Shown here: positions 6,001 through 29,366 of the stretch, one piece after another
Layout of the letters: each line of letters begins with the position of its first letter
Numbering within the stretch: position 1 is the stretch's first letter
NCBI RefSeq assembly: GCF_051014685.1
Contig: NW_027479263.1
Coordinates: 106,550-170,549, forward strand
Length of the DNA stretch: 64,000 bases
Direction: 5' to 3'
Source of the DNA: Ptiloglossa arizonensis
Lineage: Eukaryota; Arthropoda; Insecta; Hymenoptera; Colletidae
Position numbers and translations under genes: made by a program
Notes under the pieces: model-generated
What the model was told of the DNA's origin: nothing
Databases searched by the model: none
The model's input: the letters and a program-made list of their open reading frames with translations, nothing else

Positions 6001-8975
6001 GTATAACGTATAACGTATAACGTATAACGTATAACGTATAACGCATAACGTATAACGTATAACGTATTACGTATAACGTATAACGTATAACGTATAACGT
6101 ATAACGTATAACGTATAACGTATAACGTATAACGTATAACGTATAACGTATAACGTATAACGTATAACGTATAACGTATTACGTATAACGTATAACGTAT
6201 ATCCTATAACGCATAACGTATAACGTATAACGTATAACGTATAACGTATAACGTATAACGTATAACGCATAACGTATAACGTACAACGTATAACGTATAA
6301 CGTATAACGTATAACGTATAACGCATAACGTATAACGTATAACGTATTACGTATAACGTATAACGTATAACGTATAACGTATAACGTATAACGTATAACG
6401 TATAACGTATAACGTATAACGTATAACGTATAACGTATAACGTATAACGTATAACGTATTACGTATAACGTATAACGTATATCCTATAACGCATAACGTA
6501 TAACGTATAACGTATAACGTATAACGTATAACGTATAACGTATAACGTATAACGTATAACGTATTACGTATAACGTATAACGTATATCCTATAACGCATA
6601 ACGTATAACGTATAACGTATAACGTATAACGTATAACGTATAACGTATTACGTATAACGTATAACGTATATCCTATAACGCATAACGTATAACGTATAAC
6701 GTATAACGTATAACGTATAACGTATAACGTATAACGCATAACGTATAACGTATAACGTATAACGTATAACGTATAACGTATAACGTATAACGTATAACGT
6801 ATAACGTATAACGTATAACGTATAACGTACAACGTATAACGTATAACGTATAACGTATAACGTATAACGCATAACGTATAACGTATAACGTATAACGTAT
6901 AACGTATAACGTATAACGTATAACGTATAACGTATAACGCATAACGTATAACGCATAACGTATAACGCATAACGAATAACGTATAACGTATAACGTATAA
7001 CGTATAACGTATAAAGTATAACGTATAACGTATAACGTATAACGTATAACGTATAACGTATAACGTATAACGTATAACGTATAACGTATAACGTATAACG
7101 CATAACGTATAACGTATAACGTATAACGCATAACGTATAACGCATAACGTATAACGTATAACGTATAACGTATAACGTATAACGTATAACGTATAACGTA
7201 AACGTATAACGTATATCGTATAACGTATAACGTATAACGTATCACGTATAACGAATAACGTATAACGTATAACGTATAACGTATGACGTATCACGTATAA
7301 GGTATGACCTATGACGCATAACGTATAGCGTATAACGCATAACGTATAACGTATAACGTATAACGTATAACGTATAACGTATAACGTATAACGTATACCG
7401 TATAACGTATAACGTATAACGTATAACGTATAACGTATAACGTATAACGTATAACGTATAACGTATAACGTATAACGTATAACGTATAACGTATAACGTA
7501 TAACGTATAACGTATAACGTATAACGTATAACGTATAACGTATAACGTATAACGTATAACGTATAACGTATAACGTATAACGTATAACGTATAACGTATA
7601 ACGTATAACGTATAACGTATAACGTATAACGTACAACGTATAACGTACAAGGTATCACGTATAACGTATATCCTATAACGCATAATGTATATCCTATAAC
7701 GCATAACGTATAGCGTATAACGCATAACGTATTCCGTATAACGTATAACGTATTACGTATAACGTATAACGTATATCCTATAACGCATAACGTATAACGT
7801 ATAACGTATATCGTATAACGTATAACGTTTAACGCATAACGTACAACGTATAACGTATAACGTATAACGAATAACGTATAACGTATAACGTATAACGTAT
7901 AACGTATAACGTATAACGTATAACGTATAACGTATAACGTATAACGTATAACGCATAACGTATAACGCATAACGTATAACGTGTAACGTGTAACGTATAA
8001 CGTATGACGTATCACGTATAAGGTATGACCTATAACGCATAACGTGTAACGTATAACGTATAACGTATAACGTATAAAGTATAACGTATAACGTATAACG
8101 TATAACGTATAACGTATAACGTATAACGTATAACGTATAACGTATAACGTATAACGTATAACGTATAACGTATAACGTATAACGTATAACGTATAACGTA
8201 TAACGTATAACGTATAACGTCTAACGTATAATGTATAACGTATAACGTATAACGTATAACGTAAAACGTATAACGTATAACGTATAACGTATAACGTATA
8301 ACGTATAACGTATAACGTATAACGTATAACGTATAACGTATAACGTATAACGTATAACGTATAACGTATAACGTATAACGTATAACGTATAACGTATAAC
8401 GTATAACGTATAACGTATAACGTATAACGTATAACGTATAACGTATAACGTATAACGTATAACGTATAACGTATAACGTATAACGTATAACGTATAACGT
8501 ATAACGTATAACGTATAACGTATAACGTATAACGTATAACGTATAACGTATAACGTATAACGTATAACGTATAACGTATAACGTATAACGTATAACGTAT
8601 AACGTATAACGTATAACGTACAAGGTATCACGTATAACGTATAACGTATAACGCATAACGTATAACGTATAACGAATAACGTATAACGTATAACGTATAA
8701 CGTATAACGTATAACGTATAACGTATAACGTATAACGTGTAACGTATAACGTATATCCTATAACGCATAACGTATAACGCACAACGTATAACGTATAACG
8801 TATAACGTATAACGTATAACGTATAACGCATAACGTATAACGCATAACGTATAACGTATAACGTGTAACGTATAACGTATGACGTATCACGTATAAGGTA
8901 TGACCTATAACGCATAACGTATAACGTATAACGTATAACGTATAACGTATAACGTATTACGTATAACGTATAACG

Positions 8976-9600
8976 TATTACATATTACATATAACGTATA
9001 GCGAACAACGTATAACGTATAAAATGTAACGTCTAACGTTTAACGTATAACGTACAACGTATAACGTATATCGCATAACGTATAACGCATAACGTATAAC
9101 GTATAACGTGTAACGTATAACGTATAGCGTATAACGTATAACGTATTACATATTACATATAACGTATAACGTACAACGTATAACGTATAACATATAACGT
9201 CTAACGTTTAACGTATAACGTACAACGTATAACGTATAACGTATAACGTATAACGTATAACGTATAACGTATAACGTATGACGTATCACGTATAAGGTAT
9301 GACCTATAACGCATAACGTATAGCGTATAACGCATAACGCATAACGTATAACGTATAACGTATACCGTATTACGCATAACCTATAACGTCTAACGTATAA
9401 CGTATAACGTATAACGTATAACGTATAACGTATAGCGTATAACGTATAACGTATAACTTATAACGTATAACGTATAACGTATTACGTTTAACCTGTAACG
9501 TCCAACGTATAACGTATAACGTATAACGTATTACATATTACATATAACGTATAACGTTCAACGTATAACGTATAACATATAACGTCTAACGTTTAACGCA
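8976..9600 (+). repeat. Divergent, AT-richer satellite patch with ATTACATATTACATATAACG
   Basis: This is the most degenerate part of the regular array. It contains ATTACATATTACATATAACG (near 8977, 9144 and 9528), a longer unit reading TATAAAATGTAACG (9018), TCTAACG and TTTAACG units, and odd units such as TAACCTATAACG near 9378 and TTTAACCTGTAACG near 9488. A copy of its first ~250 bp lies at 31818-32080, offset 22,842 bp. A short related piece (TATAGCG to AAAATGTAACG) is at 1372-1410. It carries no open frame other than the satellite phase and shows no mobile-element ends. It may be an older, less homogenised part of the family. Confidence 0.75.
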
Positions 9601-10218
9601 TAACGTACAACGTATAACGTATAGCGTATAACGTATAACGTATAGCGTATAACGTATAACGCATAACGTATACCGTATAACGAATAACGTATAACGTATT
9701 ACGTATAACGTATAACGTATAACGTATAACGTATAACGTATAACGTATAACGTATAACGTATAACGTATAACGCATAACGTATAACGCATAACGTATAAC
9801 GTATAACGTGTAACGTATAACGTATGACGTATCACGTATAAGGTATGACCTATAACGCATAACGTACTATATAACCTATAACGTCTAACGTATAACGTAT
9901 AACGTATAACGTATAACGTATAACGTATAACGTATAACGTATAACGTATCACGTATAACGTATATCCTATAACGCATAACGTATATCCTATAACGCATAA
10001 CGTATAGCGTATACCGCATAACGTATACCGTATAACGTATAACGTCAAACGTATAACGTATAACGTATAACGTATAACGTATAACGTATAACGCATAACG
10101 TATAACGTATACCGTATAACGTATAACGTCAAACGTATAACGTATAACGTATAACGTATAACGTATAACGCATAACGTATAACGTATAACGTATAACGCA
10201 TAACGTATAACGTATAAC

Positions 10219-12532
10219 GAATAACGTATAACGTATAACGTATAACGTATAACGTATAACGTATAACGTATAACGTATAACGTATAACGTATAACGTATA
10301 ACGTATAACGTATAACGCATAACGTATAACGCATAACGTATAACGTATAACGTGTAACGTATAACGTATGACGTATCACGTATAAGGTATGACCTATAAC
10401 GCATAACGTATAACGTATAACGTATAACGTATAACGTATAACGTATAACGTATAACGTATAACGTATAACGTATAACGTATAACGTATAACGTATAACGT
10501 ATAACGTATAACGTATAACGTATAACGTATAACGTATAACGTATAACGTATAACGTATAACGTATAACATATAACGTATAACGTATAACGCATAACGTAT
10601 AACGCATAACGTATAACGTATAACGAATAACGTATAACGTATAACGTATAACGTATAACGTATAACGTATAACGAATAACGTATAACGTATAACGTGTAA
10701 CGTATAACGTATAACGTATAACGTATAACGTATAACGTATAACGTATAACGTATAACGTATAACGTATAACGCATAACGTATAACGCATAACGTATAACG
10801 TATAACGTATAACGTATAACGTATAACGTATAACGTAAACGTATAACGTATATCGTATAACGTATAACGTATAACGTATAACGTATAACGAATAACGTAT
10901 AACGTATAACGTATAACGTATGACGTATCACGTATAAGGTATGACCTATGACGCATAACGTATAGCGTATAACGGATAACGTATAACGTATAACGCATAA
11001 CGTATATCCTATAACGCATAACGTATAGCGTATAACGCATAACGTATACCGTATAACGTATAACGTCAAACGTATAACGTATAACGTATAACGTATAACG
11101 TATAACGTATAACGCATAACGTATAACGTATACCGTATAACGTATAACGTCAAACGTATAACGTGTAACGTATAACGTATGACGTATCACGTATAAGGTA
11201 TGACCTATAACGCATAACGTATAACGTATAACGTATAACGTATAACGTATAACGTATAACGTATAACGTATAACGTATAACGCATAACGTATAACGCATA
11301 ACGTATAACGTATAACGTGTAACGTATAACGTATGACGTATCACGTATAAGGTATGACCTATAACGCTTAACGTGTAACGTATAACGTATAACGTATAAC
11401 GTATAAAGTATAACGTATAACGTATAACGTATAACGTATAACGTATAACGTATAACGTATAACGTATAACGTATAACGTATAACGTATAACGTATAACGT
11501 ATAACGTATAACGTATAACGTATAACGTATAACATATAACGTATAACGTATAACGTATAACGTATAACGTATAACGTCTAACGTATAATGTATAACGTAT
11601 AACGTATAACGTATAACGTAAAACGTATAACGTATAACGTATAACGTATAACGTATAACGTATAACGTATAACGTATAACGTATAACGTATAACGTAAAC
11701 GTATAACGTATAACGAATAACGTATAACGTATAACGTATAACGTATAACGTATAACGTATAACGTATAACATATAACGTATAACGTATAACGTATAACGA
11801 ATATCGTATAACGTATAACGTATAACGTATAACGTATAACGTATAACGTATAACGTATAACGTATAACGTATAACGTATAACGTATACCGTATAACGTAT
11901 AACGTATAACGTATAACGTATAAAGTATAACGTATAACGTATAACGTGTAACGTGTAACGTATATTCTATAACGCATAACGTATAGCGTATAACGTATAA
12001 CGTAAACGTATAACGTATATCGTATAACGTATAACGTATAACGTATAACGTATAACGAATAACGTATAACGTATAACGTACAACGTATGACGTATCACGT
12101 ATAAGGTATGACCTATGACGCATAACGTATAGCGTATAACGCATAACGTATAACGCATAACGTATAACGTATAACGTATAACGTATAACGTATAACGTAT
12201 AACGTATAACGTATAACGTATAACGTATAACGTATAACGTATAACGTATAACGTATAACGTATAACGTATAACGTATAACGTATAACGTATAACGTATAA
12301 CGTATAACGTATAACGTATAACGTATAACGTATAACGTATAACGTATAACGTATAACGTATAACGTATAACGTATAACGTATAACGTATAACGTACAACG
12401 TACAACGTATAACGTACAACGTACAACGTACAACGTATAACGTACAACGTATAACGTATAACGTATAACGTATAACGTATAACGTATAACGTATAACGTA
12501 TAACGTATAACGTATAACGTATAACGTATAAC
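10219..12532 (+). repeat. Segmental tandem duplication, copy 1 (2,314 bp)
   Basis: Diagnostic variants in this segment recur exactly 2,314 bp downstream. GAATAACG at 10219 matches 12533, the start of a run of TACAACG units at 12393 matches 14707, and the pattern between them (marker blocks, AACATA variants, 6-bp units) corresponds throughout the stretches I compared. The left edge lies between 10200, where the copies differ (GCATAACG against GTATAACG), and 10219. The duplicated unit contains several marker blocks, so it is a higher-order unit and not a single-repeat expansion. Identity appears complete over the compared parts, but I did not align every base. Confidence 0.85.
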
Positions 12533-14846
12533 GAATAACGTATAACGTATAACGTATAACGTATAACGTATAACGTATAACGTATAACGTATAACGTATA
12601 ACGTATAACGTATAACGTATAACGTATAACGCATAACGTATAACGCATAACGTATAACGTATAACGTGTAACGTATAACGTATGACGTATCACGTATAAG
12701 GTATGACCTATAACGCATAACGTATAACGTATAACGTATAACGTATAACGTATAACGTATAACGTATAACGTATAACGTATAACGTATAACGTATAACGT
12801 ATAACGTATAACGTATAACGTATAACGTATAACGTATAACGTATAACGTATAACGTATAACGTATAACGTATAACGTATAACATATAACGTATAACGTAT
12901 AACGCATAACGTATAACGCATAACGTATAACGTATAACGAATAACGTATAACGTATAACGTATAACGTATAACGTATAACGTATAACGAATAACGTATAA
13001 CGTATAACGTGTAACGTATAACGTATAACGTATAACGTATAACGTATAACGTATAACGTATAACGTATAACGTATAACGTATAACGCATAACGTATAACG
13101 CATAACGTATAACGTATAACGTATAACGTATAACGTATAACGTATAACGTAAACGTATAACGTATATCGTATAACGTATAACGTATAACGTATAACGTAT
13201 AACGAATAACGTATAACGTATAACGTATAACGTATGACGTATCACGTATAAGGTATGACCTATGACGCATAACGTATAGCGTATAACGGATAACGTATAA
13301 CGTATAACGCATAACGTATATCCTATAACGCATAACGTATAGCGTATAACGCATAACGTATACCGTATAACGTATAACGTCAAACGTATAACGTATAACG
13401 TATAACGTATAACGTATAACGTATAACGCATAACGTATAACGTATACCGTATAACGTATAACGTCAAACGTATAACGTGTAACGTATAACGTATGACGTA
13501 TCACGTATAAGGTATGACCTATAACGCATAACGTATAACGTATAACGTATAACGTATAACGTATAACGTATAACGTATAACGTATAACGTATAACGCATA
13601 ACGTATAACGCATAACGTATAACGTATAACGTGTAACGTATAACGTATGACGTATCACGTATAAGGTATGACCTATAACGCTTAACGTGTAACGTATAAC
13701 GTATAACGTATAACGTATAAAGTATAACGTATAACGTATAACGTATAACGTATAACGTATAACGTATAACGTATAACGTATAACGTATAACGTATAACGT
13801 ATAACGTATAACGTATAACGTATAACGTATAACGTATAACGTATAACATATAACGTATAACGTATAACGTATAACGTATAACGTATAACGTCTAACGTAT
13901 AATGTATAACGTATAACGTATAACGTATAACGTAAAACGTATAACGTATAACGTATAACGTATAACGTATAACGTATAACGTATAACGTATAACGTATAA
14001 CGTATAACGTAAACGTATAACGTATAACGAATAACGTATAACGTATAACGTATAACGTATAACGTATAACGTATAACGTATAACATATAACGTATAACGT
14101 ATAACGTATAACGAATATCGTATAACGTATAACGTATAACGTATAACGTATAACGTATAACGTATAACGTATAACGTATAACGTATAACGTATAACGTAT
14201 ACCGTATAACGTATAACGTATAACGTATAACGTATAAAGTATAACGTATAACGTATAACGTGTAACGTGTAACGTATATTCTATAACGCATAACGTATAG
14301 CGTATAACGTATAACGTAAACGTATAACGTATATCGTATAACGTATAACGTATAACGTATAACGTATAACGAATAACGTATAACGTATAACGTACAACGT
14401 ATGACGTATCACGTATAAGGTATGACCTATGACGCATAACGTATAGCGTATAACGCATAACGTATAACGCATAACGTATAACGTATAACGTATAACGTAT
14501 AACGTATAACGTATAACGTATAACGTATAACGTATAACGTATAACGTATAACGTATAACGTATAACGTATAACGTATAACGTATAACGTATAACGTATAA
14601 CGTATAACGTATAACGTATAACGTATAACGTATAACGTATAACGTATAACGTATAACGTATAACGTATAACGTATAACGTATAACGTATAACGTATAACG
14701 TATAACGTACAACGTACAACGTATAACGTACAACGTACAACGTACAACGTATAACGTACAACGTATAACGTATAACGTATAACGTATAACGTATAACGTA
14801 TAACGTATAACGTATAACGTATAACGTATAACGTATAACGTATAAC
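12533..14846 (+). repeat. Segmental tandem duplication, copy 2 (2,314 bp)
   Basis: This is the direct neighbour of copy 1 at a constant offset of 2,314 bp. The match stops at about 14846, because the GAATAACG variant that would continue a third full copy at 14847 is absent. The cluster of adjacent TACAACG units at 14707-14760 is the same as that at 12393-12446. Perfect adjacency and near identity point to a recent unequal exchange or an assembly duplication. Both explanations remain open. Confidence 0.83.
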
Positions 14847-14903
14847 GTATAACGTATAACGTATAACGTATAACGTATAACGTATAACGTATAACGTATA
14901 ACG

Positions 14904-14994
14904 TACAAGGTATCACGTATAACGTATATCCTATAACGCATAATGTATATCCTATAACGCATAACGTATAGCGTATAACGCATAACGTATACCG
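14904..14994 (+). repeat. Marker block A, representative copy (13 variant heptamers)
   Basis: Block A is a fixed series of thirteen heptamers starting TACAAGG then TATCACG, containing TATATCC twice and CATAATG once, then TATAGCG, and ending TATACCG. Other clean copies span 17393-17483, 27303-27393 and 37771-37861. Further copies start near 3488, 5280, 7648, 16330, 21186, 22495, 23671, 24630, 27729, 28675, 30087, 31476, 32188, 32650, 32888, 35099, 38764, 39708, 42551, 42852, 43664, 44629, 45152, 45877, 46484, 46968, 48761, 49270, 49853, 51266, 51937, 52427 and 53606. Some of these differ by one or two bases. Such linkage of rare variants shows that the block is copied as a unit. Confidence 0.88.
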
Positions 14995-15035
14995 TATAAC
15001 GTATAACGTATAACGTATAACGTATAACGTATAAC

Positions 15036-16454
15036 GCATAACGTATAACGCATAACGTATAACGTATAACGTGTAACGTATAACGTATGACGTATCACGT
15101 ATAAGGTATGACCTATAACGCTTAACGTGTAACGTATAACGTATAACGTATAACGTATAAAGTATAACGTATAACGTATAACGTATAACGTATAACGTAT
15201 AACGTATAACGTATAACGTATAACGTATAACGTATAACGTATAACGTATAACGTATAACGTATAACGTATAACGTATAACGTATAACATATAACGTATAA
15301 CGTATAACGTATAACGTATAACGTATAACGTCTAACGTATAATGTATAACGTATAACGTATAACGTATAACGTAAAACGTATAACGTATAACGTATAACG
15401 TATAACGTATAACGTATAACGTATAACGTATAACGTATAACGTATAACGTAAACGTATAACGTATAACGAATAACGTATAACGTATAACGTATAACGTAT
15501 AACGTATAACGTATAACGTATAACATATAACGTATAACGTATAACGTATAACGAATATCGTATAACGTATAACGTATAACGTATAACGTATAACGTATAA
15601 CGTATAACGTATAACGTATAACGTATAACGTATAACGTATACCGTATAACGTATAACGTATAACGTATAACGTATAAAGTATAACGTATAACGTATAACG
15701 TGTAACGTGTAACGTATATTCTATAACGCATAACGTATAGCGTATAACGTATAACGTAAACGTATAACGTATATCGTATAACGTATAACGTATAACGTAT
15801 AACGTATAACGAATAACGTATAACGTATAACGTACAACGTATGACGTATCACGTATAAGGTATGACCTATGACGCATAACGTATAGCGTATAACGCATAA
15901 CGTATAACGCATAACGTATAACGTATAACGTATAACGTATAACGTATAACGTATAACGTATAACGTATAACGTATAACGTATAACGTATAACGTATAACG
16001 TATAACGTATAACGTATAACGTATAACGTATAACGTATAACGTATAACGTATAACGTATAACGTATAACGTATAACGTATAACGTATAACGTATAACGTA
16101 TAACGTATAACGTATAACGTATAACGTATAACGTACAACGTACAACGTATAACGTACAACGTACAACGTACAACGTATAACGTACAACGTATAACGTATA
16201 ACGTATAACGTATAACGTATAACGTATAACGTATAACGTATAACGTATAACGTATAACGTATAACGTATAACGTATAACGTATAACGTATAACGTATAAC
16301 GTATAACGTATAACGTATAACGTATAACGTACAAGGTATCACGTATAACGTATATCCTATAACGCATAATGTATATCCTATAACGCATAACGTATAGCGT
16401 ATAACGCATAACGTATACCGTATAACGTATAACGTATAACGTATAACGTATAAC
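15036..16454 (+). repeat. Third, shorter higher-order copy (~1.43 kb)
   Basis: This segment repeats the preceding ~1.43 kb. CATAACG at 13596 matches 15036 (offset 1,440), while the TACAACG cluster at 14707 matches 16133 and the TACAAGG marker at 14904 matches 16330 (offset 1,426). The change of 14 bp between offsets equals two heptamers gained or lost inside an otherwise pure run. The match ends near 16454, where the CATAACG spacing diverges. Together with the two 2,314-bp copies, this makes 10.2-16.45 kb a nested higher-order repeat region. Confidence 0.78.
15086..15134 (+). repeat. Marker block B, representative empty target site (7 variant heptamers)
   Basis: Block B runs TATGACG, TATCACG, TATAAGG, TATGACC, a TATAACG-type unit, a CATAACG-type unit and TGTAACG. 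It recurs dozens of times. Sub-variants differ after TATGACC: TATAACG-CATAACG-TGTAACG (for example 3869, 10390), TATGACG-CATAACG-TATAGCG (for example 4697, 7306), a CTTAACG form (11364, 13678, 15118, 18980), an ACCAATGACG form (20631, 25711, 29539) and a TATAGCGC form (33635, 38161, 52602). This copy is the best empty equivalent of the retrotransposon site. The bases GGTATGACCTAT at 15105-15116 are followed by the same AACGCTTAACGTGTAACG seen downstream of the insertion at 18981. Confidence 0.88.
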
Positions 16455-17768
16455 GCATAACGTATAACGTATACCGTATAACGTATAACGTATAACGCAT
16501 AACGTATAACGTATAACGTATAACGCATAACGTATAACGTATAACGAATAACGTATAACGTATAACGTATAACGTATAACGTATAACGTATAACGTATAA
16601 CGTATAACGTATAACGTATAACGTATAACGCATAACGTATAACGCATAACGTATAACGTATAACGTGTAACGTATAACGTATGACGTATCACGTATAAGG
16701 TATGACCTATAACGCATAACGTGTAACGTATAACGTATAACGTATAACGTATAACGTATAACGTATAACGTATAACGTATAACGTATAACGTATAACGAA
16801 TAACGTATAACGTATAACGTATAACGTATAACGTATAACGTATAACGTATAACGTATAACGTATAACGTATAACGTATAACGTATAACGTATAACGCATA
16901 ACGTATAACGCATAACGTATAACGTATAACGTATAACGTATAACGTATAACGTATAACGTAAACGTATAACGTATATCGTATAACGTATAACGTATAACG
17001 TATAACGTATAACGAATAACGTATAACGTATAACGTATAACGTATGACGTATCACGTATAAGGTATGACCTATGACGCATAACGTATAGCGTATAACGCA
17101 TAACGTATAACGTATAACGTATAACGTATAACGTATAACGTATAACTTATAACGTATACCGTATAACGTATAACGTATAACGTATAACGTATAACGTATA
17201 ACGTATAACGTATAACGTATAACGTATAACGTATAACGTATAACGTATAACGTATAACGTATAACGTATAGCGTATAACGTATAACGTATAACGTATAAC
17301 GTATAACGTATAACGTATAACGTATAACGTATAACGTATAACGTATAACGTATAACGTATAACGTATAACGTATAACGTACAACGTATAACGTACAAGGT
17401 ATCACGTATAACGTATATCCTATAACGCATAATGTATATCCTATAACGCATAACGTATAGCGTATAACGCATAACGTATACCGTATAACGTATAACGTAT
17501 TACGTATAACGTATAACGTATATCCTATAACGCATAACGTATAACGTATAACGTATATCGTATAACGTATAACGTTTAACGCATAACGTACAACGTATAA
17601 CGTATAACGTATAACGAATAACGTATAACGTATAACGTATAACGTATAACGTATAACGTATAACGTATAACGTATAACGTATAACGTATAACGTATAACG
17701 CATAACGTATAACGCATAACGTATAACGTATAACGTGTAACGTATAACGTATGACGTATCACGTATAA

Positions 17769-17780
17769 GGTATGACCTAT
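17769..17780 (+). other. 5' target-site duplication of the R1-clade insertion
   Basis: GGTATGACCTAT lies immediately before the first non-satellite base. The same twelve bases follow the poly(A) tail at 18969-18980. The two preceding A residues (17767-17768) could extend the duplication to 14 bp, but on the 3' side they cannot be told from the tail. The motif is the junction of two variant units in marker block B. A direct duplication of this size is the footprint of target-primed reverse transcription with staggered nicks. Confidence 0.93.
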
Positions 17781-18377
17781 GCGCATGCGGCTTTCTACGA
17801 GGGCCGCATGCGCGCCCGCGAGGATGGGGTGGTCCTGCCGGGCTGCGAGGTGGAGGCCCTGAGGCGCCAGGCCCGGGAGTCCATGCTGCAGCTTTGGCAG
17901 CAGCGGCTGGCCGAGCCGTTGTTCGGCCAGAGGACTGTCCGGGCTATCCGGCCGGTCCTGTTTGAGTGGCTGGGTAGGCGCTTCGGCTCACTCACCTACC
18001 GGTTGGTGCAGGTGCTGTCCGGGCACGGATGCTTCGGTCAGTACCTGTGCCGGATCGGTGTGGAAGAGGCGGCGCGCTGCTGGCACTGTCCAGCGGACGA
18101 GGACACGGCGCAACACACCCTCGAGGTGTGTCCGGCCTGGGGGGTGGAGCGCCGTGTCCTCACGGCCGTGATTGGGGCGGACCTATCGCTGCCGGGCGTG
18201 GTACAGGCCATGCTCGGCAGCGAGACGAAGTGGCGGGCCGTGGCCTCCTTCTGCGAGGAGGTATACTCGCGGAAGGAGGCCGCGAGCCGCATTCGCGAGA
18301 GCGGGAGACCGCGAGCGAGGCCTAGTCCGAGGCCGGGGGCGGGTGGGCCTCCGGAAGGGCTGGGGAGGCCACCCTGA
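17781..18377 (+). CDS. C-terminal fragment of R1-clade reverse-transcriptase ORF2 (5'-truncated)
   Basis: The frame stays open from the island's first base to TGA at 18375-18377. An ATG at 17772 lies in the upstream satellite and adds three chance codons (M-T-Y), giving 201 residues; it is not a genuine start. Numbering from that ATG, residues 42-80 carry the thumb/C-terminal motif WQQRL, then AIRPVLFEWLGRR and a LTYRLVQVLSGHGCFG segment at 74-89. A CCHC zinc finger follows, with ligands C103, C106, H115 and C120 (spacing CX2CX8HX4C), and CPAW at 120-123. The tail after about residue 175 is rich in R, P and G. In R1-type proteins this region lies C-terminal to the reverse transcriptase and is thought to bind nucleic acid. 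The intact protein would exceed 1,000 residues, so endonuclease and polymerase are missing. The second finger residue pair is CWHC, where many relatives have CHHC; all zinc ligands are kept. There are no internal stops or frameshifts, so the insertion may be fairly young. Strong GC bias differs from the surrounding satellite. Confidence 0.9.
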   Translation, partial: AHAAFYEGRMRAREDGVVLPGCEVEALRRQARESMLQLWQQRLAEPLFGQRTVRAIRPVLFEWLGRRFGSLTYRLVQVLSGHGCFGQYLCRIGVEEAARCWHCPADEDTAQHTLEVCPAWGVERRVLTAVIGADLSLPGVVQAMLGSETKWRAVASFCEEVYSRKEAASRIRESGRPRARPSPRPGAGGPPEGLGRPP

Positions 18378-18580
18378 GAGCGGCGGGCGGGGGTGCGTAG
18401 CCCTTGAGGCTCGTGCCACCGCCCGTCGTCTGAGGGGTGGGAGGAATAAGGGACGGCGACGCTCTCGAGGGCGGAGAGGCCAGAGCCGCCCTCGGGAGCG
18501 TACGAGCCGGGGTGCGGCCGCGCCGACGGCACGGTCCCAGGGCCGTGCCTCCGGCGCGGCTATGGGGGCCGTGGGCGGTC

Positions 18581-18597
18581 GCGAGTGTGGGACTCGC
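18581..18597 (+). other. 3' UTR hairpin 1 (6-bp stem)
   Basis: GCGAGT at 18581-18586 pairs with ACTCGC at 18592-18597 around a 5-base loop. It is directly followed by a GGCCGCCC/GGGCGGCC inverted repeat (18598-18605 and 18608-18615), whose two-base gap would need opening of the innermost pair. Short, so weaker than the others. Confidence 0.5.
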
Positions 18598-18626
18598 GGC
18601 CGCCCTCGGGCGGCCCCCGGGAGTGG

Positions 18627-18659
18627 GACGTCGGAGCAGTGTGGCCCTGCTCCGACGTC
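18627..18659 (+). other. 3' UTR hairpin 2 (13-bp perfect stem)
   Basis: GACGTCGGAGCAG at 18627-18639 is the exact reverse complement of CTGCTCCGACGTC at 18647-18659, with a 7-base loop (TGTGGCC). A perfect 13-bp GC-rich stem is unlikely by chance and would form a stable RNA hairpin. Confidence 0.8.
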
Positions 18660-18685
18660 GGGCGCCAGAGCGCCGAGGAGAAAAC

Positions 18686-18720
18686 AGGGAAGGGAGGGTG
18701 AAGTACCCCCTCCCTTCCCT
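18686..18720 (+). other. 3' UTR hairpin 3 (13-bp purine/pyrimidine stem)
   Basis: AGGGAAGGGAGGG at 18686-18698 pairs perfectly with CCCTCCCTTCCCT at 18708-18720 around a 9-base loop. One arm is pure purine and the other pure pyrimidine, so the DNA could also form a triplex-type structure. The first strand contains several G-triplets. Confidence 0.8.
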
Positions 18721-18754
18721 GGAACGGGAGGACACGGGCGCGAGAGCCCTGCAC

Positions 18755-18801
18755 GGGGGAGCACCTGATGTTATGATGTCTTCGGTCCCAGGTGCTCCCC
18801 C
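18755..18801 (+). other. 3' UTR hairpin 4 (12-bp stem)
   Basis: GGGGGAGCACCT at 18755-18766 pairs perfectly with AGGTGCTCCCCC at 18790-18801. The loop is 23 bases. Three more pairs (GCA at 18751-18753 with TGC at 18802-18804) can form beyond a one-base bulge. Confidence 0.78.
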
Positions 18802-18847
18802 TGCATAGTGCGAGGATGGCCACCGTGGTGGGTTTTAGTGGGTAGGT

Positions 18848-18880
18848 CCCGCGCCCGATGGGTTTCCTTCCGGGCGCGGG
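18848..18880 (+). other. 3' UTR hairpin 5 (10-bp stem)
   Basis: CCCGCGCCCG at 18848-18857 pairs perfectly with CGGGCGCGGG at 18871-18880 around a 13-base loop. It is the penultimate stem before the tail. Confidence 0.75.
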
Positions 18881-18892
18881 GAATCCCACACT

Positions 18893-18921
18893 CCCCCCGC
18901 CCCTCCCCAGGCGGCGGGGGG
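18893..18921 (+). other. 3' UTR hairpin 6 (9-bp stem) close to the tail
   Basis: CCCCCCGCC at 18893-18901 pairs with GGCGGGGGG at 18913-18921 around an 11-base loop. It lies ~30 bases before the poly(A) start, a suitable place for recognition by the element's reverse transcriptase, though that is inference. Confidence 0.65.
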
Positions 18922-18946
18922 GTCTTTCGAAGATTTCCCCCACGTT

Positions 18947-18968
18947 AATAAAAAAAAAAAAAAAAAAA
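18947..18968 (+). other. AATAAA and 19-A poly(A) tail of the element
   Basis: AATAAA at 18947-18952 runs straight into 19 consecutive A residues (18950-18968), then the satellite duplication GGTATGACCTAT. The signal overlaps the tail instead of preceding it by 10-30 bases, so it may be coincidence or a minimal 3' terminus. The tail marks this copy as made from polyadenylated RNA or by A-slippage during target-primed synthesis. Confidence 0.85.
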
Positions 18969-18980
18969 GGTATGACCTAT
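18969..18980 (+). other. 3' target-site duplication of the R1-clade insertion
   Basis: GGTATGACCTAT repeats 17769-17780 exactly. The satellite then continues AACGCTTAACGTGTAACG, as in the unoccupied block B at 15105 onward. Removing the island plus one copy of the duplication restores an ordinary block B, so nothing was deleted on insertion. Confidence 0.93.
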
Positions 18981-20451
18981 AACGCTTAACGTGTAACGTA
19001 TAACGTATAACGTATAACGTATAAAGTATAACGTATAACGTATAACGTATAACGTATAACGTATAACGTATAACGTATAACGTATAACGTATAACGTATA
19101 ACGTATAACGTATAACGTATAACGTATAACGTATAACGTATAACATATAACGTATAACGTATAAAGTATAACGTATAACGTATAACGTATAACGTATAAC
19201 GTATAACGTATAAAGTATAACGTATAACGTATAACGTGTAACGTGTAACGTATATCCTATAACGCATAACGTATAGCGTATAACGTATAACGTAAACGTA
19301 TAACGTATATCGTATAACGTATAACGTATAACGTATAACGTATAACGTATAACGAATAACGTATAACGTATAACGTACAACGTATGACGTATCACGTATA
19401 AGGTATGACCTATGACGCATAACGTATAGCGTATAACGCATAACGTATAACGTATAACGTATAACGTATAACGTATAACGTATAACGTATAACGTATAAC
19501 GTATAACGTATAACGTATAACGTATAACGTATAACGTATAACGTATAACGTATAACGTATAACGTATAACGTATAACGTATAACGTATAACGTATAACGT
19601 ATAACGTATAACGTATAACGTATAACGTATAACGTATAACGTATAACGTATAACGTATAACGTATAACGTATAACGTATAACGTATAACGTATAACGTAT
19701 AACGTATAACGTATAACGTATAACGTATAACGTATAACGTATAACGTATAACGTATAACGTATAACATATAACGTATAACGTATAAAGTATAACGTATAA
19801 CGTATAACGTATAACGTATAACGTATAACGTATAAAGTATAACGTATAACGTATAACGTATAACGTGTAACGTATATCCTATATCGCATAACGTATAGCG
19901 TATAACGTATAACGTAAACGTATAACGTATATCGTATAACGTATAACGTATAACGTATAACGTATAACGTATAACGTATAACGTATAACGTATAACGTAT
20001 AACGTATAACGTATAACGTATAACGTATAACGTATAACGTATAACGTATAACGTATAACGTATAACGTATAACGTATAACGTATAACGTATAACGCATAA
20101 CGTATAACGTATAACGAATAACGTATAACGTATAACGCATAACGTATAACGTATAACGTATAACGTATAACGTATAACGTATAACGTATAACGTATAACG
20201 CATAACGTATAACGCATAACGTATAACGTATAACGTATAACGTATAACGTATAACGTATAACGTATAACGTATAACGTATAACGTATAACGTATAACGTA
20301 TAACGTATAACGTATAACGTATAACGTATAACGTATAACGTATAACGCATAACGTATAACGTATAACGAATAACGTATAACGTATAACGCATAACGTATA
20401 ACGTATAACGTATAACGTATAACGTATAACGTATAACGTATAACGTATAAC

Positions 20452-21340
20452 GCATAACGTATAACGCATAACGTATAACGTATAACGTATAACGTATAAC
20501 GTATAACGTATAACGTATAACGTAAACGTATAACGTATATCGTATAACGTATAACGTATAACGTATAACGTATAACGAATAACGTATAACGTATAACGTA
20601 TAACGTATGACGTATCACGTATAAGGTATGACCAATGACGCATAACGTATAGCGTATAACGCATAACGTATAACGTATAACGTATAACGTATAACGTATA
20701 ACGTATAACGTATAACGTATAACGTATAACGTATAACGTATAACGTATAACGTATAACGTATAACGTATAACGTATAACGTATAACGTATAACGTATAAC
20801 GTATAACGTATAACGTATAACGTATAACGTATAACGTATAACGTATAACGTATAACGTATAACGTATAACGTATAACGTATAACGTATAACGTATAACGT
20901 ATAACGTATAACGTATAACGTATAACGTATAACGTATAACGTATAACGTATAACGTATAACGTATAACGTATAACGTATAACGTATAACGTATAACGTAT
21001 AACGTATAACGTATAACGTATAACGTATAACGTATAACGTATAACGTATAACGTATAACGTATAACGTATAACGTATAACGTATAACGTATAACGTATAA
21101 CGTATAACGTATAACGTATAACGTATAACGTATAACGTATAACGTATAACGTATAACGTATAACGTATAACGTACAACGTATAACGTACAAGGTATCACG
21201 TATAACGTATATCCTATAACGCATAATGTATATCCTATAACGCATAACGTATAGCGTATGACGCATAACGTATACCGTATAACGTATAACGTATAACGTA
21301 TAACGTATAACGCATAACGTATAACGTATACCGTATAACG
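20452..21340 (+). repeat. Duplicated block containing the longest pure heptamer run
   Basis: It contains a 6-bp unit (20523), the rare block-B form ACCAATGACG (20631), then a run of unvaried TAACGTA units at 20664-21172 (about 72 units), block A, and the rare TATAGCG-TATGACG pair near 21252. The same series occurs at 29367-30240, offset 8,908 bp before the pure run and 8,901 bp after it, a difference of exactly one heptamer. This is strong evidence of copying as one block. Confidence 0.82.
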
Positions 21341-21870
21341 TATAACGTCAAACGTATAACGTATAACGTATAACGTATAACGTATAACGTGTAACGTATA
21401 ACGTATGACGTATCACGTATAAGGTATGACCTATAACGCATAACGTGTAACGTATAACGTATAACGTATAACGTATAACGTATAACGTATAACGTATAAC
21501 GTATAACGTATAACGTATAACGTATAACGTATAACGTATAACGTATAACGTATAACGTATAACGTATAACGTATAACGTATAACGTATAACGTATAACGT
21601 ATCACGTATAACGTATAACATATAACGTATAACGTATAACGTATAACGAATAACGTATAACGTATAACGTATAATGTCTAACGTATAATGTATAACGTAT
21701 AACGTATAACGTATAACGTAAAACGTATAACGTATAACGTATAACGTATAACGTATAACGTATAACGTATAACGTATAACGTATAACGTAAACGTATAAC
21801 GTATATCGTATAACGTATAACGTATAACGTATAACGTATAACGAATAACGTATAACGTATAACGTATAAC

Positions 21871-23990
21871 GTATGCATTATCACGTATAAGGTATGACCT
21901 ATGACGCATAACGTATAGCGTATAACGCATAACGTATAACGTATAACGTATAACGTATAACGTATAACGTATAACGTGTAACGTATAACGTATAACGTGT
22001 AACGTATAACGTGTAACGTATAACGTGTAACGTATAACGTGTAACGTATAACGTGTAACGTATAACGTATAACGTATAACGTATAACGTATAACGTATAA
22101 CGTATAACGTATAACGTATAACGTATAACGTATAACGTATAACGTATAACGTATAACGTATAACGTATAACGTATAACGTATAACGTATAACGTATAACG
22201 TATAACGTATAACGTATAACGTATAACGTATAACGTATAACGTATAACGTATAACGTACAACGTACAACGTATAACGTATAACGTACAACGTATAACGTA
22301 TAACGTATAACGTATAACGTATAACGTATAACGTATAACGTATAACGTATAACGTATAACGTATAACGTATAACGTATAACGTATAACGTATAACGTATA
22401 ACGTATAACGTATAACGTATAACGTATAACGTATAACGTATAACGTATAACGTATAACGTATAACGTATAACGTATAACGTATAACGTATAACGTACAAG
22501 GTATCACGTATAACGTATATCCTATAACGCATAATGTATATCCTATAACGCATAACGTATAGCGTATAACGCATAACGTATACCGTATAACGTATAACGT
22601 ATAACGTATAACGTATAACGCATAACGTATAACGTATACCGTATAACGTATAACGTATAACGCATAACGTATAACGTATAACGTATAACGCATAACGTAT
22701 AACGTATAACGAATAACGTATAACGTATAACGTATAACGTATAACGTATAACGTATAACGTATAACGTATAACGTATAACGTATAACGTATAACGCATAA
22801 CGTATAACGCATAACGTATAACGTATAACGTGTAACGTATAACGTATGACGTATCACGTATAAGGTATGACCTATAACGCATAACGTGTAACGTATAACG
22901 TATAACGTATAACGTATAACGTATAACGTATAACGTATAACGTATAACGTATAACGTATAACGAATAACGTATAACGTATAACGTATAACGTATGCATTA
23001 TCACGTATAAGGTATGACCTATGACGCATAACGTATAGCGTATAACGCATAACGTATAACGTATAACGTATAACGTATAACGTATAACGCATAACGTATA
23101 ACGTATAACGTATAACGTATAACGTATAACGTATAACGTGTAACGTATAACGTATAACGTGTAACGTATAACGTGTAACGTATAACGTGTAACGTATAAC
23201 GTGTAACGTATAACGTGTAACGTATAACGTATAACGTATAACGTATAACGTATAACGTATAACGTATAACGTATAACGTATAACGTATAACGTATAACGT
23301 ATAACGTATAACGTATAACGTATAACGTATAACGTATAACGTATAACGTATAACGTATAACGTATAACGTATAACGTATAACGTATAACGTATAACGTAT
23401 AACGTATAACGTATAACGTATAACGTATAACGTATAACGTACAACGTACAACGTATAACGTATAACGTACAACGTATAACGTATAACGTATAACGTATAA
23501 CGTATAACGTATAACGTATAACGTATAACGTATAACGTATAACGTATAACGTATAACGTATAACGTATAACGTATAACGTATAACGTATAACGTATAACG
23601 TATAACGTATAACGTATAACGTATAACGTATAACGTATAACGTATAACGTATAACGTATAACGTATAACGTACAAGGTATCACGTATAACGTATATCCTA
23701 TAACGCATAATGTATATCCTATAACGCATAACGTATAGCGTATAGCGCATAACGTATACCGTATAACGTATAACGTATAACGTATAACGTATAACGCATA
23801 ACGTATAACGTATACCGTATAACGTATAACGTATAACGCATAACGTATAACGTATAACGTATAACGCATAACGTATAACGTATAACGAATAACGTATAAC
23901 GTATAACGTATAACGTATAACGTATAACGTATAACGTATAACGTATAACGTATAACGTATAACGTATAACGCATAACGTATAACGCATAA
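21871..23990 (+). repeat. Tandem ~1.1-1.2 kb higher-order copies marked by GTATGCATTATCACG
   Basis: The rare variant GTATGCATTATCACG, replacing the usual TATGACG-TATCACG of block B, occurs at 21871, 22991 and 26238, plus a close relative (GACATTATCACG) near 30392. Each is followed by block B and then a ladder of alternating TGTAACG and TATAACG units. The first two copies lie 1,120 bp apart, and their downstream block A copies lie 1,176 bp apart, a difference of eight heptamers. Confidence 0.78.
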
Positions 23991-26900
23991 CGTATAACGT
24001 ATAACGTGTAACGTATAACGTATGACGTATCACGTATAAGGTATGACCTATAACGCATAACGTGTAACGTATAACGTATAACGTATAACGTATAACGTAT
24101 AACGTATAACGTATAACGTATAACGTATAACGTATAACGTATAACGTATAACGTATAACGTATAACGTATAACGTATAACGTATAACGTGTAACGTATAA
24201 CGTATAACGTATAACATATAACGTATAACGTATAACGTATAACGTATAACGTATAACGTATAACGTATAACGCGTAACGTATAACGTATAACGTGTAACG
24301 CATAACGTATAACGTATAACGAATAACGTATAACGTATAACGTATAACGTATAACGTATAACGTATAACGTATAACGTATAACGTATAACGTATAACGTA
24401 TAACGTATAACGTATAACGTATAACGTATAACGTATAACGTATAACGTATAACGTATAACGTATAACGTATAACGTATAACGTATAACGTATAACGTATA
24501 ACGTATAACGTATAACGTATAACGTATAACGTATAACGTATAACGTATAACGTATAACGTATAACGTATAACGTATAACGTATAACGTATAACGTATAAC
24601 GTATAACGTATAACGTACAACGTATAACGTACAAGGTATCACGTATAACGTATATCCTATAACGCATAATGTATATCCTATAACGCATAACGTATAGCGT
24701 ATAACGCATAACGTATACCGTATAACGTATAACGTATAACGTATAACGTATAACGCATAACGTATAACGTATACCGTGTAACGTATAACGTCAAACGTAT
24801 AACGTATAACGTATAACGTATAACGTATAACGTGTAACGTATAACGTATGACGTATCACGTATAAGGTATGACCTATAACGCATAACGTGTAACGTATAA
24901 CGTATAACGTATAACGTATAACGTATAACGTATAACGTATAACGCATAACGTATAACGTATAACGAATAACGTATAACGAATAACGTATAACGTATAACG
25001 TATAACGTATAACGTATAACGTATAACGTATAACGTATAACGTATAACGTATAACGAATAACGTATAACGTATAACGTATAACGTATAACGTATAACGTA
25101 TAACGTATAACGTATAACGTATAACGTATAACGTATAACGTATAACGTATAACGTATAACGTATAACGTATAACGTATAACGTATAACGTATAACGTATA
25201 ACGTATAACGTATAACGTATAACGTATAACGTATAACGTATAACGTATAACGTATAACGTATAACGTATAACGTATAACGTATAACGTATAACGTATAAC
25301 GTATAACGTATAACGTATAACGTATAACGTATAACGTATAACGTATAACGTATAACGTATAACGTATAACGTATAACGTATAACGTATAACGTATAACGT
25401 ATAACGTATAACGTATAACGTATAACGTATAACGCATAACGTATAACGTATAACGAATAACGTATAACGTATAACGTATAACGTATAACGTATATAGTAT
25501 AACGTATAACGTATAACGTATAACGTACAACGTATAACGCATAACGTATAACGCATAACGTATAACGTATAACGTATAACGTATAACGTATAACGTATAA
25601 CGTAAACGTATAACGTATATCGTATAACGTATAACGTATAACGTATAACGTATAACGAATAACGTATAACGTATAACGTATAACGTATGACGTATCACGT
25701 ATAAGGTATGACCAATGACGCATAACGTATAGCGTATAACGCATAACGTATAACGTATAACGTATAACGTATAACGTATAACGTATAACGTATAAGGTAT
25801 AACGTATAGCGTATAACGCATAACGTATACCGTATAACGTATAACGTATAACGTATAACGTATAACGCATAACGTATAACGTATACCGTATAACGTATAA
25901 CGTATAACGCATAACGTATAACGTATAACGTATAACGCATAACGTATAACGTATAACGAATAACGTATAACGTATAACGTATAACGTATAACGTATAACG
26001 TATAACGTATAACGTATAACGTATAACGTATAACGTATAACGCATAACGTATAACGCATAACGTATAACGTATAACGTGTAACGTATAACGTATGACGTA
26101 TCACGTATAAGGTATGACCTATAACGCATAACGTGTAACGTATAACGTATAACGTATAACGTATAACGTATAACGTATAACGTATAACGTATAACGTATA
26201 ACGTATAACGAATAACGTATAACGTATAACGTATAACGTATGCATTATCACGTATAAGGTATGACCTATGACGCATAACGTATAGCGTATAACGCATAAC
26301 GTATAACGTATAACGTATAACGTATAACGTATAACGTATAACGTGTAACGTATAACGTATAACGTGTAACGTATAACGTGTAACGTATAACGTGTAACGT
26401 ATAACGTGTAACGTATAACGTGTAACGTATAACGTATAACGTATAACGTATAACGTATAACGTATAACGTATAACGTATAACGTATAACGTATAACGTAT
26501 AACGTATAACGTATAACGTATAACGTATAACGTATAACGTATAACGTATAACGTATAACGTATAACGTATAACGTATAACGTATAACGTATAACGTATAA
26601 CGTATAACGTATAACGTATAACGTATAACGTATAACGTATAACGTACAACGTACAACGCATAACGTATAACGCATAACGTATAACGTATAACGTGTAACG
26701 TATAACGTATGACGTATCACGTATAAGGTATGACCTATAACGCATAACGTGTAACGTATAACGTATAACGTATAACGTATAACGTATAACGTATAACGTA
26801 TAACGTATAACGTATAACGTATAACGTATAACGTATAACGTATAACGTATAACGTATAACGTATAACGTATAACGTGTAACGTATAACGTATAACGTATA

Positions 26901-29366
26901 ACATATAACGTATAACGTATAACGTATAACGTATAACGTATAACGTATAACGTATAACGCGTAACGTATAACGTATAACGTGTAACGCATAACGTATAAC
27001 GTATAACGAATAACGTATAACGTATAACGTATAACGCATAACGTATAACGTATAACGTATAACGTATAACGTATAACGTATAACGTATAACGTATAACGT
27101 ATAACGTATAACGTATAACGTATAACGTATAACGTATAACGTATAACGTATAACGTATAACGTATAACGTATAACGTATAACGTATAACGTATAACGTAT
27201 AACGTATAACGTATAACGTATAACGTATAACGTATAACGTATAACGTATAACGTATAACGTATAACGTATAACGTATAACGTATAACGTACAACGTATAA
27301 CGTACAAGGTATCACGTATAACGTATATCCTATAACGCATAATGTATATCCTATAACGCATAACGTATAGCGTATAACGCATAACGTATACCGTATAACG
27401 TATAACGTATAACGTATAACGTATAACGCATAACGTATAACGTATACCGTGTAACGTATAACGTCAAACGTATAACGTATAACGTATAACGTATAACGTA
27501 TAACGTGTAACGTATAACGTATGACGTATCACGTATAAGGTATGACCTATAACGCATAACGTGTAACGTATAACGTATAACGTATAACGTATAACGTATA
27601 ACGTATAACGTATAACGCATAACGTATAACGTATAACGAATAACGTATAACGAATAACGTATAACGTATAACGTATAACGTATAACGTATAACGTATAAC
27701 GTATAACGTATAACGTATAACGTATAACGTACAAGGTATCACGTATAACGTATATCCTATAACGCATAATGTATATCCTATAACGCATAACGTATAGCGT
27801 ATAGCGCATAACGTATACCGTATAACGTATAACGTATAACGTATAACGTATAACGCATAACGTATAACGTATACCGTATAACGTATAACGTATAACGCAT
27901 AACGTATAACGTATAACGTATAACGCATAACGTATAACGTATAACGAATAACGTATAACGTATAACGTATAACGTATAACGTATAACGTATAACGTATAA
28001 CGTATAACGTATAACGTATAACGTATAACGCATAACGTATAACGCATAACGTATAACGTATAACGTGTAACGTATAACGTATGACGTATCACGTATAAGG
28101 TATGACCTATAACGCATAACGTGTAACGTATAACGTATAACGTATAACGTATAACGTATAACGTATAACGTATAACGTATAACGTATAACGTATAACGTA
28201 TAACGTATAACGTATAACGTATAACGTATAACGTATAACGTATAACGTGTAACGTATAACGTATAACGTATAACATATAACGTATAACGTATAACGTATA
28301 ACGTATAACGTATAACGTATAACGTATAACGCGTAACGTATAACGTATAACGTGTAACGCATAACGTATAACGTATAACGAATAACGTATAACGTATAAC
28401 GTATAACGTATAACGTATAACGTATAACGTATAACGTATAACGTATAACGTATAACGTATAACGTATAACGTATAACGTATAACGTATAACGTATAACGT
28501 ATAACGTATAACGTATAACGTATAACGTATAACGTATAACGTATAACGTATAACGTATAACGTATAACGTATAACGTATAACGTATAACGTATAACGTAT
28601 AACGTATAACGTATAACGTATAACGTATAACGTATAACGTATAACGTATAACGTATAACGTACAACGTATAACGTACAAGGTATCACGTATAACGTATAT
28701 CCTATAACGCATAATGTATATCCTATAACGCATAACGTATAGCGTATAACGCATAACGTATACCGTATAACGTATAACGTATAACGTATAACGTATAACG
28801 CATAACGTATAACGTATACCGTGTAACGTATAACGTCAAACGTATAACGTATAACGTATAACGTATAACGTATAACGTGTAACGTATAACGTATGACGTA
28901 TCACGTATAAGGTATGACCTATAACGCATAACGTGTAACGTATAACGTATAACGTATAACGTATAACGTATAACGTATAACGTATAACGCATAACGTATA
29001 ACGTATAACGAATAACGTATAACGAATAACGTATAACGTATAACGTATAACGTATAACGTATAACGTATAACGTATAACGTATAACGTATAACGTATAAC
29101 GAATAACGTATAACGTATAACGTATAACGTATAACGTATAACGTATAACGTATAACGTATAACGTATAACGTATAACGTATAACGTATAACGTATAACGT
29201 ATAACGTATAACGTATAACGTATAACGTATAACGTATAACGTATAACGTATAACGTATAACGCATAACGTATAACGTATAACGAATAACGTATAACGTAT
29301 AACGTATAACGTATAACGTATAACGTATAACGTATAACGTATAACGTATAACGTATAACGTATAAC

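What the first reader, a model, noticed from the sequence alone, without database searches (positions are those of the whole stretch)
17769..18980. R1-clade retrotransposon inserted cleanly into a heptamer satellite
The sequence shows an intact integration footprint: a 5'-truncated element, a 19-A tail, and an exact 12-bp target duplication (up to 14 bp). Established knowledge: many R1-clade elements are target-specific (R1 in 28S rDNA with a ~14-bp duplication, TRAS and SART in telomeric TTAGG repeats, others in microsatellites). A member using this heptamer satellite as a home would be a new target type. One insertion alone cannot prove specificity.
Basis: partly seen in the sequence, partly recalled or inferred. 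Interest (0 to 1): 0.8.

Follow-up and report, generated by a model that had tools for sequence, protein, structure and literature searches.

The report
Jumping gene homing to satellite DNA
A young R1-type jumping gene of an insect-like genome lands mostly in a 7-base satellite repeat, nearly always at the same few points of the repeat, but also at one favoured point of another satellite, so its home looks like a short cutting motif that satellites offer rather than the 7-base repeat alone.

Summary
Window 17781-18968 is a 5'-truncated non-LTR retrotransposon (last 198 codons of ORF2, 3' UTR, A19) in heptamer satellite, with a 14-bp duplication AAGGTATGACCTAT (17767-17780, 18967-18980). It belongs to a young family with 289 exact 3' ends in the 998.7-Mb assembly. 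Longer copies carry a CCHC ORF1 and an EN+RT ORF2 of R1-clade type.
I read the 3' flanks of the first 100 of the 289: 61 lie in the heptamer, 31 in a 177-bp satellite, 6 at one unidentified repeat, 2 in unique DNA. Some places are duplicates; merged by flank, 54, 31, 1 and 2. The heptamer is about 13% of the assembly and the 177-mer roughly 45%, so the heptamer is hit about six to seven times more per base, but not exclusively. Insertions sit in fixed registers, compatible with a T^A step; 14 bp is two heptamers. In the 177-mer 15 of 31 sit at CCT^AGGCC. A forecast on 34 held-out copies held with one exception, though several shared flanks with copies already seen.
So: a satellite-homing R1-clade element with motif-level, not heptamer-exclusive, specificity. 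The genome-wide rDNA search did not complete.

The parts
17781..18949 (+). 5'-truncated non-LTR retrotransposon body (R1 clade), 1169 bp without the A tail
   Evidence: 289 exact 3' ends in the assembly
17781..18377 (+). 3' end of ORF2 (198 codons and the stop at 18375-18377) with the C-terminal CX2CX8HX4C motif (CWHCPADEDTAQHTLEVC)
   Evidence: motif read from the translation; Pfam zf-RVT only E = 0.042, below its cut-off
18378..18949 (+). 3' untranslated region, G+C-rich with several inverted repeats
18824..18944 (+). Match to Rfam RF00524 (R2_retro_el), 52.5 bits against gathering score 38, model positions 88-206 of 212
18950..18968 (+). Poly(A) tail of 19; its last two A's may belong to the target duplication
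17767..17780 (+). 5' copy of the 14-bp target site duplication AAGGTATGACCTAT (two variant heptamers)
18967..18980 (+). 3' copy of the 14-bp target site duplication
1..17766 (+). Heptamer satellite array (TATAACG)n, upstream target DNA
18981..54658 (+). Heptamer satellite array, downstream target DNA, same strand
54722..64000 (-). Heptamer satellite array on the other strand (CGTTATA as read on +); strand switch between 54658 and 54722

Best explanation
A young R1-clade non-LTR retrotransposon inserts by target-primed reverse transcription. Its APE-type endonuclease nicks the bottom strand at a T^A step, preferably with A, G or T (not C) after the A on the top strand. Poly(A) RNA primes from the T-ended nick, and the top strand is cut about 14 bp further on, often again at T^A. 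The 7-bp satellite offers such a pair of cuts in every unit, since 14 bp is two units. The 177-bp satellite offers one good pair per unit, CCT^AGGCC followed by T^A 14 bp on. The family therefore collects in satellites, mostly the heptamer. Shown: flanks, registers, duplications of about 14 bp, ORFs and per-base enrichment. Inferred: the enzyme steps, and that targeting rather than loss from chromosome arms explains the pattern.
For: Of the first 100 of 289 places, 61 lie in the heptamer, 31 in the 177-mer, 8 elsewhere. The heptamer is about 131 Mb, 13% of the assembly (7,707,599 21-mers; window density). Forty samples of contigs outside the large scaffolds gave 8 heptamer, 28 177-mer, 4 third satellite. 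Heptamer against 177-mer: p = 9e-6 on all 100, 5e-5 after merging places with shared flanks (54:31), 0.014 on held-out places with new flanks only (14:11). Heptamer registers: by script 13 of 14 reverse and 40 of 44 forward groups; after merging shared flanks 10 of 11 reverse (2 of 7 expected, p = 3e-5) and 40 of 42 forward (5 of 7 expected, p = 1e-4). In the 177-mer 15 of 31 sit at one position and 5 of 31 at the same CCTAGG in the other orientation. One chromosome-arm copy has the same motif, GCT^AGGCCCAGATCTT^AATATG. Duplications are pinned at 14 bp in the window copy, L015, L018, L022, L024, L025 and L112. Held-out forecast tested. The TA-poor third satellite took 0 of 100. Copies in the different targets are at least 98.9% identical to L026 over what was aligned.
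Against: A second T^A pair 14 bp apart in the 177-mer consensus (T^ACAG...) got 0 of 31, so T^A-N12-T^A is not sufficient; my note wrongly said there was only one such pair. 11 of 31 177-mer insertions lie at other positions (4 at one C^AAG site, 2 at an A_n|GC[A/G]TTCC site, 5 singly). L128, L027 and L005 lack T^A at one or both cuts. Off-register heptamer places: L072, L056, and L090/L091/L200 (one shared flank). The held-out test is weaker than its 34 places suggest: L169 and L170 share their flank with L023, L190 with L003, L200 with L090, and the GTCCC places with L064, so only L202 (and, by eye, L192/L193) tested the reverse register afresh. Poly(A) next to A-rich target blurs the exact nick. 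The rule was fitted after seeing 65 copies.
Confidence: 0.77

Rival explanations
1. The element inserts at loosely T/A-preferred sites anywhere, and selection plus neutral retention leaves copies only in satellite heterochromatin.
For: Only 2 of 289 exact 3' ends lie in non-satellite DNA of scaffolds C1-C15, about 342 Mb, as purging would also give. T^A density is far higher in the heptamer (2 per 7 bp, by reading) than in the 177-mer (9 per 177 bp), close to the difference in insertions per base.
Against: Both are satellites, yet they differ six- to sevenfold per base; a third satellite has 0 of 100; registers are fixed, and one of 354 strand-positions of the 177-mer takes 15 of 31. A 3.8-kb sample of chromosome DNA has 71 TA per kb, so TA alone would have hit it often. 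Divergence of about 0 to 1.1% leaves little time for purging (inference).
Confidence: 0.2
2. A strict heptamer-specific element, with the other copies as rare errors or an older subfamily.
For: 17 of 20 of the near-identical copies fetched first were in the heptamer. A few 177-mer and other copies share variants at four sites.
Against: 31 of 100 are in the 177-mer, with their own hot spot. Copies identical to L026 over the last 1,025 bp also lie there (L024, L121, L127). Among near-identical copies 14 of 19 are in the heptamer against 47 of 81 for the rest, not significant (p = 0.30).
Confidence: 0.08
3. Few insertions amplified with the satellite arrays, so the association reflects array growth, not targeting.
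For: Several places share flanks and were clearly copied: L023/L169/L170, L003/L190, L049/L050, L018/L019, L090/L091/L200, L097/L098, L192/L193, L005/L006, and five of six GTCCC places; C327 three times.
Against: After merging shared flanks 54 of 61 heptamer places remain (copies in perfect arrays cannot be told apart). Fetched copies differ in 5' truncation point, tail length, orientation and flank.
Confidence: 0.06

Closest known systems
R1 (28S rDNA-specific element of arthropods)
   Same: APE-type EN, RT, CCHC ORF1 (general R1 anatomy recalled); 14-bp target duplications of the ancestral type (PMC2718515, passages read); several of the nearest named proteins are annotated R1DM
   Different: Target is satellite DNA; none of the 100 flanks examined was recognised as 28S. 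EN scores lower against R1Bm EN (16.6 bits) than against TRAS1 EN (33.1 bits)
TRAS1 / SART1 (telomeric TTAGG elements, R1 clade)
   Same: Homes to a short tandem repeat in a fixed register; EN most like TRAS1 EN in the PDB; [quoted passage not shown]
   Different: Repeat is a 7-bp satellite of about 131 Mb and a 177-bp satellite; both orientations relative to the heptamer; no TTAGG flank among 100
L1-CS LINEs in the CUS-TR24 satellite of Cuscuta europaea
   Same: A LINE lineage concentrated in one satellite (91% of 97,860 scored elements) at two preferred sites resembling a LINE cutting motif; ends shifted by about 13-16 bp through target duplication (PMC8091179, passages read)
   Different: Plant L1 lineage, not R1 clade; a different satellite
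YURE elements in U2-derived satellite
   Same: Non-LTR elements occasionally inserted in a satellite (PMC4640811, passages read)
   Different: Related to Utopia and NeSL, not R1; weak preference
Microsatellite-specific R1-clade families (Waldo, Mino, Kagura and others)
   Same: R1-clade families that home to simple repeats (recalled, not from a call)
   Different: Recalled targets are short simple repeats; none recalled for a 7-bp or 177-bp satellite

Membership tests
R1 clade of non-LTR retrotransposons | ORF2 with APE-type endonuclease and reverse transcriptase | tested here: met
   RVT_1 108 bits, Exo_endo_phos_2 71 bits on the 1057-aa ORF2 of L026
R1 clade of non-LTR retrotransposons | ORF1 with CCHC zinc knuckles | tested here: met
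   648-aa ORF1 of L017; zf-CCHC 27.7 bits
R1 clade of non-LTR retrotransposons | C-terminal cysteine-histidine motif after the RT | tested here: inconclusive
   CX2CX8HX4C read in the translation; Pfam zf-RVT below cut-off
R1 clade of non-LTR retrotransposons | RT groups with named R1-clade elements in a phylogeny | tested here: inconclusive
   Proteins at 44-72% identity (120 of 204 hits listed), the named ones mostly insect, four annotated R1DM; sister to P0001 in a tree of 42 rows; no labelled R1, TRAS or SART reference was in the tree
R1 clade of non-LTR retrotransposons | 14-bp target site duplication of ancestral R1 type | tested here: met
   PMC2718515
R1 sensu stricto | Insertion at the R1 site of 28S rDNA | tested here: not met
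   0 of 100 3' flanks (92 assigned to satellites by script, 8 read by eye). The genome-wide 28S searches did not complete, so copies elsewhere are not excluded
TRAS/SART telomeric elements | Insertion in TTAGG repeats | tested here: not met
   0 of 100 3' flanks (the 8 outside the satellites read by eye)

The most novel reading that the evidence does not exclude
An R1-clade lineage has moved to satellite DNA as its niche because the ancestral 14-bp spacing of its two cuts equals two units of a 7-bp satellite: both strands are cut at the same step of the repeat, every unit is a site, and the same cutting rule points to the hot spot of an unrelated 177-bp satellite. Expansion of such a satellite would then be expansion of the element's niche.
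Probability: 0.38. Interest if true: 0.7.

Novelty: new variant of a known kind. Interest (0 to 1): 0.55.

Why it matters
R1-clade elements are the textbook case of LINE target specificity, but how a lineage changes target is open. Here one young family with hundreds of near-identical copies shows a readable cutting motif across several repeats, so target choice can be separated into motif, spacing and chromatin. It also suggests how very large satellite blocks can act as a safe harbour for a recently active LINE. The EN domain gives a direct test on short DNA.

Tried and rejected
Strict heptamer specificity: rejected by 31 of 100 copies in the 177-mer. Two target-specific subfamilies: not supported, although the heptamer copies with 1 kb of sequence were chosen for closeness to the window copy, so the divergence comparison (p = 7e-5) is biased and not used. 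'Exactly one T^A pair 14 bp apart in the 177-mer' was wrong: there are two, and the T^AC one is unused. A hot spot at the AAGGTAT variant unit (1.3% of units in the window): 2 of 61 heptamer insertions among the first 100 (L105, L178), not convincing. Chance or artefact: rejected by 289 copies with 0 in the reversed control.

Literature: in the listings over the open-licence PMC library I saw no report of an R1-clade element in a heptamer satellite, nor of this satellite. I read passages of PMC8091179, PMC12910113, PMC2718515, PMC5035012, PMC2868851, PMC4640811 and PMC11589580 (plus its section 19), none whole. Most subscription papers are not held there.

Full report
What was checked. The finding describes a truncated LINE in a heptamer satellite. 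Reading 17000-19800 confirms it: body 17781-18949, A19 at 18950-18968, and the 14-mer AAGGTATGACCTAT on both sides, its 3' copy beginning with the last two A's of the tail. The rest of the window is a 7-bp array, and no other non-satellite island of 25 bp or more was found. The array switches strand between 54658 and 54722.

The family. A DNA search of the window's own assembly (998,670,959 bases, 2016 contigs) listed 40 near-identical copies, all it scored of 1167 candidates. The exact 26-base 3' end occurs 289 times, reversed control 0. I fetched stretches around 20 of the copies, a choice biased to closeness to the window copy. They range from about 1.2 kb to 7.9 kb and are 99.8-100% identical to L026 over the part aligned. 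L026 has an intact 1057-aa ORF2 and L017 an intact 648-aa ORF1; in L026 the ORF2 start codon overlaps the ORF1 stop by one base. Pfam gives RVT_1, Exo_endo_phos_2 and Exo_endo_phos in ORF2 and zf-CCHC in ORF1. The protein search scored 7981 candidates and returned 204 proteins at E <= 0.001, 120 listed; the best is 72% identical over 98% of the query, and named ones include Anthophora, Lasius, Bombus and several moths, four annotated R1DM. A quick tree of 42 rows puts the query next to P0001 (SH-aLRT 100), with deeper forks unresolved. In the PDB its EN is nearest TRAS1 EN (33.1 bits), then R1Bm EN (16.6 bits). R1 clade is well supported; its exact place within the clade is not.

Where the copies are. 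Of the 20 biased copies 17 have heptamer on the 3' side, two share a 54-bp satellite flank, one is in a 177-bp satellite. For a less biased view I took the places in the order listed: 60 fetched, and 6 already held, together the first 100 of 289 (larger contigs, C2-C199). Result: heptamer 61, 177-mer 31, other 8. Of the 8, two are unique-looking DNA on large scaffolds (L052, L055) and six share one unidentified flank beginning GTCCCAGCGGCG (L064, L068, L196-L199). An earlier classifier called 14 of 60 'other' because it knew only one array of the 177-mer; with more 177-mer sequence 4 of 65 remained. Several places share a flank and are copies of one insertion; merged, the counts are 54 heptamer, 31 177-mer, 3 other.

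Background. The 21-mer of three perfect units occurs 7,707,599 times; at the window's density, 3684 in about 62.8 kb, this is about 131 Mb, 13% of the assembly. Forty samples of contigs outside the large scaffolds gave 28 177-mer, 8 heptamer, 4 of a third, TA-poor satellite; 20 samples of scaffolds C1-C15 (342 Mb from the lengths) gave 19 non-satellite and 1 177-mer. Not all sample positions were drawn by script. The contigs beyond C15 sum to about 650 Mb, so the 177-mer is roughly 45% of the assembly, an estimate with wide error. Per base the heptamer is hit six to seven times more often (odds ratio 6.9, p = 9e-6 on all 100; 6.1, p = 5e-5 after merging; 4.5, p = 0.014 for held-out places with new flanks only). 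The third satellite has 0 of 100 (p = 0.008 against its share of the 40 samples). Only 2 of 289 places lie in non-satellite DNA of C1-C15 (p about 3e-46 under uniformity); selection and duplication of satellite copies may add to this.

Registers. After the A tail, forward insertions in the heptamer begin CGTATAACG (compatible with GTAT^AACG) or TAACG (compatible with CGT^ATAACG), and reverse ones TACGTTATA (compatible with CGTT^ATACG). GTAT^AACG and CGTT^ATACG are the same physical step read on the two strands. The script gives 13 of 14 reverse and 40 of 44 forward groups in these registers, but it misread the irregular tail of L192/L193 as forward and did not merge every shared flank; corrected, 10 of 11 reverse (11 of 12 with L192/L193 by eye) and 40 of 42 forward. 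The fourth T^A reading, TTAT^ACG, was not seen. In the 177-mer 15 of 31 insertions are at A_n|GGCC (one reads GGGC) and 5 of 31 at the same CCTAGG in the other orientation. Copies with both flanks give CCCT^AGGGCATTCTGGTT (L024) and CCCT^AGGCCATTCTGGTT^AAGC (L112), and one chromosome-arm copy GCT^AGGCCCAGATCTT^AATATG (L109/L052). The 177-mer consensus has two T^A pairs 14 bp apart; the other reads T^ACAG and is unused, in line with the unused T^AC reading in the heptamer.

Held-out test. Before fetching the last 34 places I wrote down four forecasts. They held with one exception: reverse insertions in one register (L169, L170, L190, L202; L192/L193 by eye), forward ones in the allowed registers except L200, 5 of 11 177-mer insertions at GGCCA and 3 more at the same CCTAGG in the other orientation, none in the third satellite, heptamer share 19 of 34. 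The test is weaker than it looks: L169 and L170 share their flank with L023, L190 with L003, L200 with L090/L091, and the GTCCC places with L064. The 177-mer part rests on flanks not identical to earlier ones.

(gap pattern) counts 149 overlapping matches genome-wide and lists 100 rows, by my count about 73 distinct heptamer places, nearly all in the two forward registers. The matching search for the reverse register and the 28S searches did not complete.

Mechanism. Shown: poly(A) tails, 5' truncation, duplications pinned at 14 bp where variant units allow it (window copy, L015, L018, L022, L024, L025, L112) and 13 to 16 in others; in long perfect arrays the length cannot be fixed. Established: 14-bp duplications for ancestral R1 (PMC2718515, passages); TRAS1 EN cuts a T-A junction (PMC2868851, passages). 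Inferred: EN of this family nicks [A/C/T]T^A on the bottom strand and often a second T^A 14 bp on, and the poly(A) RNA anneals to the T-ended nick. Fourteen is twice seven, so in the heptamer both cuts fall on the same step of the repeat.

Novelty. LINEs homing to a satellite are known (Cuscuta L1-CS, PMC8091179, passages), and R1-clade elements homing to short repeats are known (recalled, and PMC2868851). An R1-clade family in a heptamer satellite, with one cutting rule spanning unrelated satellites, was not seen in the searches listed in Tried and rejected. I call it a new variant of a known kind.

Noticed in passing
window 54658-54722: The heptamer array switches strand here; before it the array reads TATAACG, after it CGTTATA.
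   Followed up: partly
window 18824-18944: The 3' UTR matches Rfam RF00524 (R2_retro_el) above its gathering score although the element is not an R2; either a 3' end shared between R1- and R2-type elements or a family built on mixed sequences.
   Followed up: partly
L016, L021, L014 (5' ends): The longest copies differ in length at the 5' end because a stretch of a few hundred bases is repeated (L016 against L021); variable 5' UTR repeats, possibly promoter units.
   Followed up: no
L024, L029-L033 and others: A 177-bp satellite makes up 28 of 40 samples of contigs outside the large scaffolds; a third satellite (CGTTTCTCC...) 4 of 40. Much of the assembly is satellite.
   Followed up: partly
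L064, L068, L196-L199: Six of 100 copies share one unidentified 3' flank (GTCCCAGCGGCGTG...), four of them on contig C190 about 71 to 251 kb apart: an amplified unit or another preferred site.
   Followed up: partly
L023/L169/L170, L003/L190, L049/L050, L018/L019, L090/L091/L200, L097/L098, L192/L193; C327: Copies with identical or nearly identical variant flanks, i.e. satellite segments duplicated together with their insert, some on different contigs.
   Followed up: partly
L010, L011 (also L005, L006): Insertion in a 54-bp satellite after CTGC, duplication AGCTCATCTT to AGCTCATCTTCCAT (10 to 14 bp, four bases ambiguous with the element), next to heptamer array.
   Followed up: partly
window, 65 places: The variant pair AAGGTATGACC recurs every few hundred bases on one strand, a sign of higher-order repeat structure in the heptamer array.
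   Followed up: no
P0060: A protein 51% identical to this ORF2 is filed under Piscirickettsia salmonis, probably a contaminated assembly.
   Followed up: no
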